A stretch of DNA of 64,000 nt, from NCBI GenBank assembly GCA_021801355.1, contig JAJYYB010000005.1, forward strand, positions 62,001 through 126,000, read 5' to 3'. The notes under the pieces are model-generated. The model was not told the DNA's origin, ran no database searches, and saw only the letters and a program-made list of their open reading frames with translations. Source of the stretch: Microcaldota archaeon (lineage in GTDB: Archaea > Micrarchaeota > Micrarchaeia > Micrarchaeales > Micrarchaeaceae). The translations under genes and the position numbers were made by a program. Below, piece after piece: positions 4,163 to 62,362 of this stretch. Position 1 is the first letter of the stretch. Each line of letters opens with the position of its first letter.

Positions 4163-4253
4163 CGGGCCCGGCGGGATTTTCATACATTGTATTTTGAACC
4201 CGCGACCATCAGATTAGAAGTCTGCCGCTCTATCCAACCTGAGCTACGGGCCC
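4163..4253 (-). tRNA. tRNA-Arg(UCU) with a 16-nt insertion in the T-loop
   Basis: Read on the minus strand, the acceptor stem GGGCCCG/CGGGCCC is perfect, followed by discriminator G. The D-arm is GCTC...GAGC, and the anticodon loop CTTCTAA gives UCU. The T-stem GCGGG/CCCGC is perfect, but the T-loop (4176-4198) is 23 nt instead of 7. It starts TTCAA and ends AAAT, so about 16 nt are inserted. The insert can fold as ATAC-AAT-GTAT. Non-canonical tRNA micro-introns of this size, including in the T-loop, are known in archaea and are removed by the bulge-helix-bulge endonuclease. Position 27:43 is a G-A mismatch. CCA is not encoded. The last base of the TatD stop codon is tRNA base 1, suggesting co-transcription. 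Confidence 0.85.
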
Positions 4254-37142: not shown

Positions 37143-37279
37143 GGGGTTGTGGCGTAATTTGGCAGCGCAGCGGACTCCAGATGTTTATTAACTTTTGAGC
37201 TAAACGCGATGATGAGAATCTGGAATGCAAATTCAGTGGAAGTAATCCGCTAGTCAGGGTTCAAATCCCTGCAACCCCA
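37143..37279 (+). tRNA. tRNA-Trp(CCA) with a 64-nt intron after position 37
   Basis: The acceptor GGGGTTG pairs with CAACCCC; the discriminator is A. The D-arm is GCGT/GCGC. Anticodon stem GCGGA/TCCGC has loop C-T-CCA-G then intron then A. T-arm CAGGG-TTCAAAT-CCCTG is standard. The intron is 37181-37244 at the canonical 37/38 site. It contains a perfect box C (ATGATGA, 37209-37215) followed by ATCTGGA, complementary to the anticodon region TCCAGAT. In euryarchaea the tRNA-Trp intron is a C/D guide RNA for methylation of its own anticodon loop. A clear box D (CTGA) is not seen here. Confidence 0.93.
37181..37244 (+). other. tRNA-Trp intron, possible relic C/D guide
   Basis: It contains box C ATGATGA (37209-37215) and a 7-nt match to the anticodon region, but no CTGA box D or D'. 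The complementarity may also be part of the bulge-helix-bulge splicing structure. Confidence 0.6.
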
Positions 37280-57309: not shown

Positions 57310-57514
57310 GTATATAAGGCCGATTTCTGCGAGCCTAATAAGGCGCGCCTTCGTTTCGCTATCTAATAATAATTGCTTCGTTTCATCTCCCTAATGCCGA
57401 TTCCCTACGGACCAGCAGACTAAGTGCCTGTAACTATTTTTTACCATTAGCCAAGTAATGTATATATTAAAAGTTATTTTAATAGTATTCACAATACAAT
57501 CAGTAAACTGCTTT

Positions 57515-57587
57515 AGCCCCGTCGTCTAGTGGCCAAGGACAGCGGGCTTTGGACCCGCGAACATCGGTTCGAATCCGGTCGGGGCTA
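57515..57587 (+). tRNA. tRNA-Gln(UUG), intact, integration site of an element
   Basis: Acceptor AGCCCCG/CGGGGCT, anticodon stem GCGGG/CCCGC with loop CTTTGGA (anticodon TTG), T-arm ATCGG-TTCGAAT-CCGGT and discriminator A. No intron. CCA is not encoded. Its 3' 57 nt are duplicated at 62225-62281, so the gene is the attachment site of the element whose integrase starts 21 bp downstream. Confidence 0.95.
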
Positions 57588-57597
57588 ATCCGGATTT
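57531..57597 (+). repeat. attL: tRNA-Gln 3' segment, direct repeat with 62225-62291
   Basis: 57531-57588 (GGCCAAGGAC... to GGGGCTAA) is identical to 62225-62282. One mismatch (T versus C) then CCGGATTT match again, giving about 67 bp. Confidence 0.93.
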
Positions 57598-57607
57598 TCG
57601 ACAGCAC

Positions 57608-58492
57608 TTGTCGTCGTTCGAATCCGGCAAGCAAGCGAAAGACATTTTAAGCAAACCGTTCGGATCGGTAGCCAAATCCGAACTAGAAAGAGTTAAGAAG
57701 GAGTTGGAAGAACTCCTGCCAAAATTGGGCAAGAAGGACATCAAGGTACTTCGCTCAATCATCTACCAACATTGGCAGAAGAGGTTCCGAAAGAACCACC
57801 CGCCAAAGTATGGTAGCATCAACAAAGGGTTCAACGATCAGGAGTTCCAGAAGTTCTTCAGGGCAATAGACAACGACAGGTTCTGCCTATTGTTTTTGTA
57901 CCAAGCGCAGCTTGGGCTAAGGATAGGCGAGGCGGTACGCGTCAACATAAAGGACATGGACTTGGAGACAAGGGAACTGACGCTAAGAACGGAAAAGGTG
58001 CAGACCGTGGACGTGCTACTCATACCTGTGCCGCTCTTCCAACAGACGTTGGCTTTCATAAAAGCCCACGCGAGCAGGATAGAGCAGGCGCAGGGATACC
58101 TGTTCTTCAAGGATAAGGGTGGCAGCGAGCGGGCGGAGCCATACTTTGACACCAACTACGCAAGGAACGCGTTTTGCAGGTATGTAAGGCTGGCCGGGCT
58201 GGACAGCGTATATGCAGAAAGCGATGAGCCGGCGGGCAAGCCTGGCCGAAGGCTGCACAGGCTGACAACGCACAGCTTAAGGCACTACGCGATTACCAGC
58301 TTCGCCAAGCACGCCAATGGGAACATCTTCTTGGCCAGCAAGTTTGCTAGGCACCACAATCCAAGGAACACCATGACCTACATCAACACCAACAAGGAGG
58401 AGCTTTACCAGCAGATAGATGGGGCGTTCGGAATCGGCCAAGCTATGGCTCTAAAGCTCAAGGTTTCCAAGAGCGAAAATGTATCATCATAA
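57608..58492 (+). CDS. int: Tyrosine recombinase (integrase)
   Basis: The 294-residue protein has the full active-site set: Arg105 (LGLRIGEA), Lys130 (LRTEKVQ), His222-x-x-Arg225 (HSLRH), His249/250 (ARHHNP) and nucleophile Tyr258 (MTYIN). A ~90-residue N-terminal helical core-binding region precedes. It recombines attP with the tRNA-Gln gene. Because the gene is intact, it is not the SSV type that is split on integration. The only start is TTG 57608 or a later codon; the first codons repeat GTTCGAATCCGG of the tRNA T-arm (57616-57627). Confidence 0.93.
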   Translation: MSSFESGKQAKDILSKPFGSVAKSELERVKKELEELLPKLGKKDIKVLRSIIYQHWQKRFRKNHPPKYGSINKGFNDQEFQKFFRAIDNDRFCLLFLYQAQLGLRIGEAVRVNIKDMDLETRELTLRTEKVQTVDVLLIPVPLFQQTLAFIKAHASRIEQAQGYLFFKDKGGSERAEPYFDTNYARNAFCRYVRLAGLDSVYAESDEPAGKPGRRLHRLTTHSLRHYAITSFAKHANGNIFLASKFARHHNPRNTMTYINTNKEELYQQIDGAFGIGQAMALKLKVSKSENVSS

Positions 58493-58546
58493 ACAGACCG
58501 AAATAGCGAAATCCAAAAGATGGTTTTTACTTTACATGCCCAGTCA

Positions 58547-58672
58547 ACTTTATCTGGCTATTGGCAATCAGATAAAGTTCAGCTTCGACGTAAAAATTTT
58601 AAGGCCCAAAATTTTACGTCGAGCGACTTTACATTGAATATACGTCATGTTCAGATAAAGAAACAGGTAAAG
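58547..58672. repeat. Iterons I: four CAGATAAAG sites
   Basis: ACTTTATCTG at 58547-58556 is the perfect inverted copy of CAGATAAAGT at 58569-58578 (12-bp spacer). A third copy, CAGATAAAG, lies at 58652-58660, and a variant CAGGTAAAG at 58664-58672. They flank the long hairpin and probably bind an element-encoded regulator, excisionase or replication factor. Confidence 0.7.
58585..58622. repeat. Long perfect-stem inverted repeat
   Basis: TCGACGTAAAAATTTT (58585-58600) and AAAATTTTACGTCGA (58608-58622) pair over 15 bp with one bulged A; the loop is AAGGCCC. It lies between iterons of family I, about 95 bp after the integrase stop. It could be a terminator, a recombination site or an origin hairpin. 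Confidence 0.75.
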
Positions 58673-58698
58673 TTCCTGTTATCAAAAATATGAAATGC

Positions 58699-58846
58699 GA
58701 CTTGGAACAAATTTTGAACTTGGAACAAAATTTCCAAATCGTTCCAAGTCGAGCCTTCGACGGCAAGGCCAAAAAGGCCGTTTTTCTGTCGTCGGGCGCC
58801 TCGCCATTATGAAAGTATGTTGTTTTGTAGCATTTCGTTCCAAGTC
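58699..58846. repeat. Iterons II: four GACTTGGAAC sites
   Basis: Direct copies at 58699-58708 and 58717-58726 (first base A instead of G), inverted copies GTTCCAAGTC at 58741-58750 and 58837-58846. Between the inverted copies is a GGCC-AAAAA-GGCC-G hairpin followed by TTTTT (58767-58785), a terminator-like structure. Confidence 0.7.
58767..58785 (+). terminator. Hairpin plus T-tract in the element control region
   Basis: GGCC-AAAAA-GGCC then G and five T. Orientation fits transcription from the left, possibly from the integrase side. Confidence 0.45.
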
Positions 58847-58855
58847 GCCCTGCAC

Positions 58856-59110
58856 CCGCCCCTAAGCCAGCTCCGCTGGCGCTCGGCAGGCTGTGGGCGG
58901 CTGTTTGCTTTGCTAGAAGGCTGCCCTTGCCCCCACCAAGGGCAGCCGCTTAAGCTAGCCGGGCGCCTTCGGTTGCGAAGGCTAGCCCAGCTCATAGGTA
59001 TCTTTAAGGCTCATGGGAGCCGACTGCCTAAGTTGTTAGGCTTGCAGCTCATTGGAGCGACCCCACGTAAGATGAGCATGGCGAGGCTTACGTGCTGGGT
59101 TTAAGGACAA
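58856..59110 (+). ncRNA. GC-rich multi-hairpin region, candidate structured RNA of the element
   Basis: At least seven stem-loops lie in tandem. CCGCCC/GGGCGG (58856-58861 with 58895-58900) encloses GCCAGC-tcc-GCTGGC (58866-58880). GGCTGCCCTTG/CAAGGGCAGCC is an 11-bp perfect stem with 7-nt loop (58919-58947), itself enclosed by GCTAG/CTAGC. GCCTTCG-GTTG-CGAAGGC is at 58965-58982, GGCTC-ATGG-GAGCC at 59008-59021, GCCTAA-GTTG-TTAGGC at 59026-59041, GCTC-ATTG-GAGC at 59047-59058, and CACGTAAG/CTTACGTG at 59064-59094. GC content is far above the AT-rich cargo. No match to tRNA, 5S, SRP or RNase P RNA was recognised. Strand is uncertain, because the stems fold on either strand. Confidence 0.5.
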
Positions 59111-59131
59111 GGCTTAAAGCATCTCACCGCC

Positions 59132-59935
59132 ATGACTATTAAACGGGGCTATTTTATGGGGGAGAAAAATTATGGATTGGACAGGGAAAACCGATTGCAG
59201 GAAAAAGTCCGTCATATTTTAGGTTTAGTATCTCAGCATTCCGTAGAATGGCAAACGGGCTGGGGCTACTATATAAACATAAAAGAAGAATTTGGAGAGA
59301 TAGGCAGAATAGGGTTTACTCTCAATCATGATAGGTCTCGTTTAGATTTAGGTATGCATTTCGGTGATACCTTAGAGCAGGCAAAAGAACTTTATTCTAA
59401 TCAAAATGTAAAATATGAAGATTTCGCATCACTAGCGCCTGATTTTGAACCGCATCCGAATCTTCACGTTGGTATACCATACCCGGGCCCATTTACGCAT
59501 ATTGCATGGTTTAAAACGCCTAAAGGACGAGAAAGAGAATATTTTGAGTATTGGAGAAAAAACTGGTCCGGACTAAAAGCGGATGAAAGGGAGTATATCC
59601 TCGATGCTTTAAAAGAGCTGGTTGATAATAAATTAATAAACGAAATAGGGCATCCTAATAAGTATTGGATTGACCAACTTAGACTGCCAATCCGCAGCCG
59701 CGAAGAGATAACTATCGAAGATGCAGTAAATAAGCCAGAGGGTGATTACCCGATGCTCGTTATTAGACCGGCATATGCAGTAGTAGTTTATGAATATTGT
59801 ACTGTGGAGGACGTGCTAAAGAAGGAAGGTGAAGAAATCGCCAGCGATTTAAGAACAAAGATTTCAAAATGTTTTGAAACCGTATTGAAAAAGAAGCCGT
59901 TCTATCTGGCTGAGGGACAAAACCACTCTATTTGA
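59132..59935 (+). CDS. Element cargo protein 1, unknown
   Basis: The 267-residue protein (ATG 59132; ATG 59156 is an alternative beginning MGEKNYGLDRENR) has no recognised family. It is soluble and mixed alpha/beta by pattern, with aromatic-rich segments (SVEWQTGWGYYINIKEEFG, GPFTHIAWFKT, YFEYWRKNWSG). Base composition is clearly more AT-rich than the chromosome, pointing to recent transfer. The next gene starts 4 bp after its stop, so an operon is likely. Confidence 0.7.
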   Translation: MTIKRGYFMGEKNYGLDRENRLQEKVRHILGLVSQHSVEWQTGWGYYINIKEEFGEIGRIGFTLNHDRSRLDLGMHFGDTLEQAKELYSNQNVKYEDFASLAPDFEPHPNLHVGIPYPGPFTHIAWFKTPKGREREYFEYWRKNWSGLKADEREYILDALKELVDNKLINEIGHPNKYWIDQLRLPIRSREEITIEDAVNKPEGDYPMLVIRPAYAVVVYEYCTVEDVLKKEGEEIASDLRTKISKCFETVLKKKPFYLAEGQNHSI

Positions 59936-59939
59936 AGCT

Positions 59940-60188
59940 ATGGCAGAACTATCATGGTTAAAAGGACGAGACTATATTATGACGGGCGAGAATGATAAGA
60001 ATGTTAAACCCGATGCGCATGCAATTCTACCTGATACTAAATGGGCCGCTACTGAAGAAGGCAGCGGATACCGCACCTGTAGAAGCACGCTGGATTATCA
60101 CAAAGGCAGCGGAAACACCACTAGAAATCCTAAAGGAGCTGGCGCAGGACAAGTCACAATAAAATTATTAGATTTTAGTTTTAGCTAA
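59940..60188 (+). CDS. Element cargo protein 2, small, unknown
   Basis: The 82-residue open frame starts 4 bp after the previous gene. No motif is recognised. It is Gly/Lys/Asp-rich with low complexity (GSGNTTRNPKGAGAGQ), so it may be disordered or a decayed gene. Confidence 0.4.
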   Translation: MAELSWLKGRDYIMTGENDKNVKPDAHAILPDTKWAATEEGSGYRTCRSTLDYHKGSGNTTRNPKGAGAGQVTIKLLDFSFS

Positions 60189-60303
60189 CTTATACGATTG
60201 GTGAATATATACGCAAAAGCAGAAAGGACAACTAAGGGCATTTTGCCATATAAACGAATTTAGCAAAAGTAAGGGATCGCCCGGCTTAACACACTTGCCT
60301 CAA

Positions 60304-61482
60304 ATGATAGCTTTTTGTGAGCCACTTGCTTTATGGTCTCCATCTTTTAAATGGATGGAGTACAAGAAGTGCCCAGTAAGTTCCGAAGAGCTATTGCGCT
60401 ATATCAAAACTGGTCATGTGCGAGTTTTTGGGCGTAAAAAATGGTTAACGGATGAGGCTTTCAGAAACACGCATTACAAAAATAATCCAGATTGGAGTAA
60501 AGCAGCACTTTGGACCGCATATGATGATGATCTTCTTAAAATCTACGACAAAGACCTGAACAGGAAAAAGGAGGAAAGACGTGTCTGTTCAGTACCTGAT
60601 GCAATAGGGTCAGAATATGCAGATAGGGCTTTAAAGCAACCTAATAACCTAGCAGTAAGAGAGGCAAAAAATCTTATACGCAGGAATCAAGTTCCGGGTG
60701 ATTGGGACAGAGGATATAGAAATAAACCGAATATGCCACTTAATAAAAAGGTACACGAAGTACTTACCAATTCTTACAATAACATTTTAGCACGAAAACA
60801 AACTCAATCAGATTTGATGATTTTCCCAGTGGATTATATACCGCCACTTTTTGTAGGAGCTTCAAGAAATCTTTCCAAGTATAAAGAAGGCGATATTAAT
60901 ACTTTACAACTTGACCAATTTCTTAGCGAATGCGTTAATATTTTAAGCTCGTTGAAAACTTTTTCTAACGAGTGGACACTTAACCGATTTATGAATAGTA
61001 GACATAGAAAAGAATTAATAGATTGGTACGATAGGGCGTGCGAACCCACCTCTCCTTTAATAAAGGACGCATCGCTATTAAACCAAAAAGAAGTAAATTA
61101 TAATACGGTAAAAGCATTATACGACATGATAGACAAAGGGCTGATTAATGAAGAAGAGGGGATAATGGCCTTGGTGCCCAAAGATCCATACCACGCGACC
61201 ATTAGTATGGTTAGGGCCATAACGGAGATTGTAGCTATCGCCGTTGCGCCATTAGGCTTCGCAGTAGCTTATGCACCATTAGTTGTTCACCTTATCGAAG
61301 TTGGGAATAATTATTTGGAAGTTACGAGTAGAAAACCTGTGTCTTCTGCAAGATATAGAGGTATACAGGCACCTTTCATAGCACAAACGGGAGGTGGTGC
61401 TACTCTTATGCAAATAAAACGCATGAGAAACTCCCTTAAGAAACAACTTGATGAATTAAAAAATCAAAAATACAAATTATGA
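60304..61482 (+). CDS. Element cargo protein 3, unknown
   Basis: From ATG 60304 the 392-residue protein (frame from TTG 60295) begins MIAFCEPLALWSPSFKWMEY. No family can be named. It is charged and soluble-looking except for one hydrophobic stretch near residues 305-335 (ITEIVAIAVAPLGFAVAYAPLVVHLI), which may be buried or membrane-inserted. It ends in a coiled-coil-like basic tail. AT-rich like its neighbours. Function unknown; a defence or interference role is only a guess from its setting in a mobile element. Confidence 0.65.
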   Translation: MIAFCEPLALWSPSFKWMEYKKCPVSSEELLRYIKTGHVRVFGRKKWLTDEAFRNTHYKNNPDWSKAALWTAYDDDLLKIYDKDLNRKKEERRVCSVPDAIGSEYADRALKQPNNLAVREAKNLIRRNQVPGDWDRGYRNKPNMPLNKKVHEVLTNSYNNILARKQTQSDLMIFPVDYIPPLFVGASRNLSKYKEGDINTLQLDQFLSECVNILSSLKTFSNEWTLNRFMNSRHRKELIDWYDRACEPTSPLIKDASLLNQKEVNYNTVKALYDMIDKGLINEEEGIMALVPKDPYHATISMVRAITEIVAIAVAPLGFAVAYAPLVVHLIEVGNNYLEVTSRKPVSSARYRGIQAPFIAQTGGGATLMQIKRMRNSLKKQLDELKNQKYKL

Positions 61483-61504
61483 TAATAGATTTTCGGTGTT
61501 TATA

Positions 61505-61888
61505 ATGCAAAAAATAGAACTAACTAAGATTTCGGGAAAGGACGATCCAAGGGGTGAGATATTTAATCTAAGTCTTCCGGCGAAGGGTGTCATAAACATT
61601 CAGACCACAAAGAAAGGTTATGGCCGCGGAGGGCACAGCCATAGTTATAACGAAACATTCCTAGTTATTACCGGTAAAGTTGAGTATCATACTGGGATAA
61701 TAAGTAAAGAGCGTATAATTACATTCGGACCGGGTTCTGTAATTCAGACTACGCCAAAAGAACCTCACTACTTAGTAGCTAAAAAATTCTCGGTACTAAT
61801 AGAAATTCGGCCTTCTGGCACTAAATATAAAGCCAAAAATTACGAGCCATATCGGAGTAGGGTATTAAAATTAATGGATGGGTACTAA
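61505..61888 (+). CDS. Cupin-domain protein (element cargo)
   Basis: The 127-residue protein (ATG 61505) has the cupin motif 1 GGHSHSYNETFLVITGKVEYH (metal ligands H-x-H...E) and a motif 2 remnant with EPHYLV. A single small cupin could be a sugar isomerase, a dioxygenase or a sensor; context does not decide. Co-directional with the other cargo genes. Confidence 0.8.
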   Translation: MQKIELTKISGKDDPRGEIFNLSLPAKGVINIQTTKKGYGRGGHSHSYNETFLVITGKVEYHTGIISKERIITFGPGSVIQTTPKEPHYLVAKKFSVLIEIRPSGTKYKAKNYEPYRSRVLKLMDGY

Positions 61889-62224: not shown

Positions 62225-62291
62225 GGCCAAGGACAGCGGGCTTTGGACCCGCGAACATCGGTTCGAATCCGGTCGGGGCTAACCCGGATTT
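62225..62291 (+). repeat. attR: duplicated tRNA-Gln 3' segment
   Basis: The 57-bp tRNA 3' part is identical to 57531-57587, with flanking CCGGATTT also shared. It lacks the acceptor 5' strand and D-arm start, so it is not a functional tRNA. Confidence 0.93.
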
Positions 62292-62362
62292 TTGAGGTAG
62301 CTGAAATAAAAACAATTAAATATAAAATGCACCTTAATGATTAGTGGCAGGGTAGATGCGTT

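What the first reader, a model, noticed from the sequence alone, without database searches (positions are those of the whole stretch)
58856..59110. GC-rich multi-hairpin RNA candidate inside an archaeal integrative element
Seen directly: at least seven tandem stem-loops with perfect stems of 4-11 bp within 255 bp, one enclosed by a second stem, and two carrying the same GTTG loop. The surrounding element DNA is AT-rich. No coding sense is convincing and no match to tRNA, 5S, SRP or RNase P RNA motifs was recognised. Inference: the element expresses a structured RNA, for example a regulator, packaging or replication signal, or a guide-like RNA.
Basis: partly seen in the sequence, partly recalled or inferred. 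Interest (0 to 1): 0.78.

Follow-up and report, generated by a model that had tools for sequence, protein, structure and literature searches.

The report
Structured RNA of micrarchaeal integrative elements
Next to the integrase gene of small mobile DNA elements in tiny symbiotic archaea (Micrarchaeota) lies a conserved sequence, seen here in 65 genomes, that almost certainly folds as an RNA no catalogue lists, so these elements appear to carry an RNA part of unknown function alongside their integrase and changeable cargo genes.

Summary
The hairpins are real, and they are only the 3' half of a longer structured block (about 58,526-59,106). The block lies just downstream of a tyrosine integrase in a 4.8-kb element inserted in tRNA-Gln of a Micrarchaeota genome. 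A covariance model from four relatives finds the 3' domain in 26 of 85 genomes of the family. A refined model finds it in 65 of 164 genomes of the order (34 of 54 genera) and in none of 137 other genomes of the phylum. In 74 aligned copies 95% of pairs hold (75% in shuffles) and 40 of 44 pairs show two-sided changes. G.U outnumbers A.C mismatches 186 to 35, so the integrase-coding strand is the folded one. The 5' half holds 1-3 units, each with a 9-10 nt tag repeated in direct and inverted copies; tags differ between units. An integrase lies upstream on the same strand for 49 copies and on the opposite strand for none. Rfam and the phage, plasmid and viral collections have no match. Best reading: a new non-coding RNA family, a core part of these elements. 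Transcription and function are unproven. Guide RNA, integrase 3'-UTR, cargo leader and chance repeats are disfavoured; a folded single-stranded DNA site remains possible.

The parts
57514..57588 (+). tRNA-Gln(TTG), integration target; its 3' part is the left attachment repeat
   Evidence: ARAGORN and Rfam; direct repeat with 62225-62295, 97% over 71 bp
57608..58492 (+). tyrosine recombinase (integrase) gene of the element
   Evidence: Pfam PF00589, E 1e-10; relatives upstream of 49 of 74 RNA copies
58526..58676 (+). tag unit A: T1 58529-58538, T2 58547-58556 (loop of CCAGT/ATTGG), T1' 58569-58578, S hairpin about 58586-58621, T3' 58652-58660, T4' 58664-58673; tag ACTTTATCTG
   Evidence: direct sequence; unit detection and inner-stem test, control
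58696..58849 (+). tag unit B: T1 58700-58708, inner stem 58709-58716/58726-58733 with second tag copy in its loop, T1' 58740-58750, S hairpin about 58759-58794, last inverted tag about 58836-58846; tag ACTTGGAAC
   Evidence: direct sequence
58846..58899 (+). P1: outer stem enclosing the CCAGC/GCTGG hairpin
   Evidence: minimum-energy fold; inverted copy in L028
58919..58947 (+). P3: 11-bp hairpin with loop GCCCCCACC; stem covaries
58955..58991 (+). P4: hairpin with GTTG loop (optional; absent from many relatives)
58996..59004 (+). AGGTATCTT strand, pairs with AAGG at 59103-59106 to close the 3' domain (U.G wobble here, CCUU in relatives)
   Evidence: helix 4, helix 3 (96-97% paired)
59008..59021 (+). 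P5: GGCTC-ATGG-GAGCC hairpin (optional)
   Evidence: direct sequence; alignment
59026..59041 (+). P6: GCCTAA-GTTG-TTAGGC hairpin
   Evidence: 97-98% paired
59047..59058 (+). P7: GCTC-ATTG-GAGC hairpin
59060..59106 (+). P8 and closing AAGG; 3' end of the conserved block
   Evidence: blastn similarity to relatives mostly ends at 59,048-59,143
59132..61888 (+). cargo of this element: 267-aa, 82-aa and 395-aa proteins (no Pfam match for the 267- and 395-aa ones) and a 130-aa cupin protein
62225..62295 (+). partial tRNA-Gln copy, right attachment repeat

Best explanation
It is the gene of a structured non-coding RNA, about 580 nt here, that is a core part of a family of tRNA-inserted integrative elements of Micrarchaeota. 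Shown: conserved covarying structure, folded strand, fixed order tRNA - integrase - (small, often toxin-antitoxin-like genes) - RNA - variable cargo. Inferred: it is transcribed as its own unit. Inferred, about 0.35: it acts in trans for the element itself (control of excision, copy number or transfer) as a self-folding and possibly self-associating RNA. In that model the 3' domain is the constant scaffold, and each 5' unit shows its tag in a loop that kisses the inverted tag of the same or another molecule.
For: Covariation: 97.0% of cells paired against 78.9% shuffled, 48 of 61 pairs with two-sided change; 95.0% against 75.1%, 40 of 44 pairs, score 0.443 against 0.141 in 73 distinct copies, slid controls at most 0.082. 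A model from 4 relatives finds 26 of 85 family genomes, E down to 5e-24 outside the genus; the refined model finds 65 of 164 order genomes and 0 of 137 others. Strand: G.U 186 against A.C 35, 68 of 69 informative copies and 27 of 34 pair columns lean the same way; U.G is the commonest type at some pairs. Integrase upstream on the same strand 49, opposite 0. Own unit: 20 of these copies have small genes, mostly on the opposite strand, between integrase and RNA, and 22 of 70 first downstream ORFs are on the opposite strand. Tag units: 42 of 71 RNA copies against 0 of 64 and 0 of 64 control regions; inner stem and tag-flanking stem exceed shuffles (1 and 0 of 301 as high).
Against: No transcript data. 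No promoter is constant: TATA-like sequences precede some copies only. Distances of RNA and integrase correlate weakly (Mantel 0.134, 19 of 999 permutations as high), so no tight co-evolution with the integrase. The consensus fold is strong on both strands (-42.1 against -38.8 kcal/mol). The wobble bias could be partly due to models built on the + strand. Kissing between the loop tag and the last inverted tag is inferred from complementarity, not tested. Function in trans is not tested.
Confidence: 0.62

Rival explanations
1. It works as folded single-stranded DNA: a recombination, transfer or replication site (like an integron attC, an oriT or a single-strand origin) used when the element is excised or copied.
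For: Tyrosine integrase next door, cargo replaced at the 3' end of the block, second core modules between cargo genes in L030 and L022 and weakly L024, repeated flipping of hairpin loops, no shared replication or transfer gene seen in the cargo.
Against: G.U favoured over A.C more than 5 to 1 and U.G dominant at some pairs, expected for RNA more than DNA; only 2-3 of about 70 loci have more than one core, so no cassette array; unit and multi-helix complexity exceeds known attC sites (own knowledge).
Confidence: 0.2
2. It is a cis-regulatory region: a long 3' UTR controlling integrase mRNA (as lambda sib) or a 5' leader of the cargo genes.
For: In 24 copies it follows the integrase within 600 bases; 48 of 70 first downstream ORFs are on the same strand, median distance to the first same-strand ORF 135 bases.
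Against: 20 copies have other genes between integrase and block, mostly on the opposite strand; 22 of 70 first downstream ORFs point the other way; some copies have no integrase nearby.
Confidence: 0.13
3. Its tags are guides that direct the integrase to its tRNA target, as bridge RNA directs IS110.
For: Variable tags in a constant scaffold next to a recombinase gene.
Against: Tags or their complements are within 50-60 bases of the target tRNA in 0 of 37 units; one tag occurs with Val, Leu and Glu targets, and Gln and Pro elements share a tag; weak co-evolution.
Confidence: 0.02
4. A cluster of palindromic repeats (REP or MITE-like) with no function for the element.
For: Palindromes flip orientation and the tag units vary in number.
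Against: One fixed place and orientation in 49 elements, constant order of helices, covariation across 34 genera.
Confidence: 0.03

Closest known systems
GOLLD and ROOL RNAs (large ornate RNAs of phages and prophages; PMC12286853)
   Same: Large structured RNA of a mobile element, near tRNA genes, constant 3' region with a variable 5' region (GOLLD), kissing-loop complementarity, function unknown.
   Different: No Rfam match; archaeal; tied to an integrase; tag units with three direct and three inverted copies. Oligomer formation not tested.
STAXI motif (PMC2864571)
   Same: Tandem pseudoknot-like repeats near integrase genes; the authors likewise weighed single-stranded DNA against RNA.
   Different: Described from bacteria; no Rfam match here; no long constant 3' domain described.
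IS110 bridge RNA
   Same: Non-coding structured sequence beside a recombinase gene.
   Different: Different recombinase class; tags do not match the target.
Integron attI/attC sites
   Same: Structured single strand next to a tyrosine integrase, with variable cargo behind it.
   Different: As a rule one block per element; G.U bias; integrase sits at a tRNA attachment site.
SSV/pNOB8-type archaeal integrative elements (review PMC8371274)
   Same: Tyrosine integrase inserted at a tRNA gene.
   Different: That review has no occurrence of 'hairpin', 'RNA structure' or 'DPANN'.

Membership tests
Any family of Rfam 15 | score at or above the gathering threshold | tested here: not met
   only tRNAs; best other match in the block Twister-sister 17.7 bits, threshold 34
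GOLLD / ROOL | match to the family's covariance model | tested here: not met
   not listed up to E 10 and 0.5
GOLLD / ROOL | homo-oligomeric RNA complex | not testable with these tools
   needs native gels or cryo-EM
STAXI motif | match to the family's covariance model | tested here: not met
Bridge RNA (guide of a recombinase) | variable segment matches the integration target | tested here: not met
   0 of 37 tags near the target tRNA
Integron attC array | repeated folded sites, one per gene cassette | tested here: not met
   second core in only L022, L030 and weakly L024
New family proposed here | covariation supporting the structure in diverse copies | tested here: met
New family proposed here | transcribed in cells | not testable with these tools
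   no RNA-seq available
tRNA-targeting tyrosine-integrase element | integrase with direct attachment repeats in a tRNA gene | tested here: met
   PF00589; 71-bp repeat at 57.53 and 62.23 kb

The most novel reading that the evidence does not exclude
A two-part mobility system: a tyrosine integrase plus an obligatory, tag-coded, self-associating RNA that replaces replication or transfer proteins (an RNA-based replicon or RNA-assisted recombinase) in elements that otherwise share no gene besides the integrase.
Probability: 0.13. Interest if true: 0.93.

Novelty: new variant of a known kind. Interest (0 to 1): 0.74.

Why it matters
Micrarchaeota are tiny symbionts, and I found no paper in the library on integrative elements or structured RNA of theirs. 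An RNA family with over 100 copies in 34 genera, at a fixed place in elements whose only shared protein is an integrase, gives a handle on how such minimal elements persist and spread. Its repeated tags, the same within a unit and different between units, look like a natural set of orthogonal RNA interaction codes that can be tested in vitro.

Tried and rejected
Known RNA families: none. Tags as guides to the tRNA target: rejected. A UUCG-tetraloop argument for RNA: dropped, because on inspection most loops are UUC triloops. A constant TATA box before the first tag: not supported. Shared cargo protein as partner: none found, cargo is diverse. Presence in IMG/VR, phage or plasmid records: none by exact patterns, blastn or the integrase. 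Circular contigs showing a free element: none of nine short contigs or contig pieces had overlapping ends. Tight co-evolution of RNA and integrase: only weak. MAFFT on all variants misaligned the last helix, so the model was built from one variant and extended.

Full report
What was checked. The finding names 255 bp (58856-59110) of tandem hairpins. They are there, seven or more, two with GTTG loops. The region is 60% GC against 39% in the cargo behind it. Folding one sequence alone is only mildly unusual (z -2.2 on the + strand, -3.6 on the - strand), so the question was decided by comparison.

Setting. The window is part of contig C3 of a 1.07-Mb genome. The nearest named records holding the integrase are Candidatus Micrarchaeota metagenome assemblies. 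A tRNA-Gln at 57514-57588 and a partial copy at 62225-62295 bracket a 4.8-kb element. The element holds a tyrosine recombinase gene (PF00589, E 1e-10), the hairpin block and a small cargo.

The block is larger than reported. blastn against relatives shows conservation from about 58,500 to 59,110 and a second half upstream of the reported one. The 5' half has two units here, one to three elsewhere. Each unit holds a 9-10 nt tag in direct and inverted copies around a second hairpin. Tags differ between units but agree within a unit: ACTTTATCTG, ACTTGGAAC, ACTAAAGACC, CTCTACATG and others. Such units were detected next to 42 of 71 copies and in 0 of 64 and 0 of 64 control regions of the same loci. 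In many units a second tag copy sits in the loop of a small stem between the paired tags (for example AAATTTTG[AACTTGGAA]CAAAATTT in unit B). That stem, and a stem flanking the last inverted tag, are longer than in shuffled combinations (1 and 0 of 301 shuffles as high). This suggests, but does not prove, that the loop tag pairs with an inverted tag in the same or another molecule.

Covariation of the 3' domain. A model from four relatives finds the window copy at 136.9 bits and 26 of 85 genomes of the family. On 34 aligned copies, 97.0% of cells pair (shuffled 78.9%) and 48 of 61 pairs show changes on both sides. A refined model finds 65 of 164 genomes of the order, 34 of 54 genera, and none of 137 further genomes of the phylum. 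On 74 copies, 95.0% of cells pair (75.1% shuffled), 40 of 44 pairs have two-sided changes, and the covariation score is 0.443 (0.141 shuffled; slid controls at most 0.082). These alignments were fitted to the structure, which favours it. The first, unfitted alignment already gave 8 pairs with two-sided changes among 4 sequences.

Strand. Wobble pairs G.U number 186, A.C mismatches 35. Counted per copy, 68 lean to G.U and 1 to A.C; per pair column, 27 and 7. U.G is the commonest type at one pair of the last domain helix and G.U equals G.C at its neighbour. This points to a folded + strand and, because wobbles are tolerated and even preferred, to RNA more than DNA. The models were built on the + strand, which may add some bias. 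Consensus folding of both strands differs little (-42.1 against -38.8 kcal/mol).

Gene order. Of 74 copies, 49 have the integrase upstream on the same strand and none on the opposite strand; 24 lie within 600 bases. In 20 more, small genes lie between, often toxin-antitoxin-like by eye (HicAB-, RelE-like) and mostly on the opposite strand. The block is therefore not simply the integrase 3' UTR. The first ORF behind it points the same way in 48 of 70, so it is not simply a leader. tRNA targets include Gln, Leu, Glu, Ala, Pro, Lys and Val. Cargo differs freely: AIPR with DpnII-type restriction-modification, MrcB/NucS-like nuclease with methylase (Pfam), and by eye HNH-like, ParA-like and secreted proteins. 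No protein besides the integrase is widely shared.

What it is not. Rfam has no match. Phage, plasmid and IMG/VR searches are empty. Tags do not occur near the target tRNA (0 of 37) and the same tag goes with many targets, so they are not target guides. RNA and integrase distances correlate weakly (0.134; 19 of 999 permutations as high), which argues against a tight RNA-integrase partnership.

Mechanism. Most likely an independent non-coding RNA that serves the element itself. I put about 0.35 on a trans-acting, self-associating RNA controlling excision, copy number or transfer; this step is inference. The main rival is a folded single-stranded DNA site. In its favour: cargo changes right behind the block, core-only modules sit between cargo genes in L030 and L022, and hairpins flip orientation. 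Against it: the wobble bias and the usual single copy.

Known relatives by behaviour. GOLLD and ROOL are ornate RNAs of phages near tRNA genes; GOLLD has a constant 3' and a variable 5' region, and both use kissing loops (PMC12286853). STAXI is a tandem pseudoknot near integrases (PMC2864571). Neither matches by covariance model. Papers searched show no such RNA in Micrarchaeota, within a library that lacks most subscription journals.

Noticed in passing
L032:7273-8540: An IS110-family transposase gene (by eye, 319 aa) is inserted inside the hairpin block; another insertion of about 1.3 kb splits the integrase gene of the same element.
   Followed up: partly
L021, L022, L072, L075, L082, L115, L117, L118, L127 (P3); L028 (P1): Hairpin loops appear in reverse-complement orientation (GCCCCCACC against GGTGGGGGC) while stems are kept: palindrome flipping, perhaps by template switching.
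   Followed up: partly
L030:612-767, L022:5410-5521, L024:8790-8899: Solitary copies of only the last helices (core) lie between cargo genes, same orientation as the main block (the L024 one is weak).
   Followed up: partly
L121, L124, L125, L133 upstream of the block: Copies without integrase upstream share a conserved stretch of about 200 bases (AACCCCGATTAAGCACATTTGCC...TTTATATAGACGCCGGGTGCGG) before the first tag.
   Followed up: no
L023:6741-11977; L031:7822-10236: Cargo looks like defence genes: AIPR, DpnII endonuclease, N6/N4 methylases, ParB-N-like protein; MrcB/NucS-like nuclease.
   Followed up: partly
window 37143-37279: Rfam finds a tRNA spread over 137 bases, probably intron-containing; ARAGORN misses it. 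A weak tRNA-like match lies at 4195-4253 (-).
   Followed up: no
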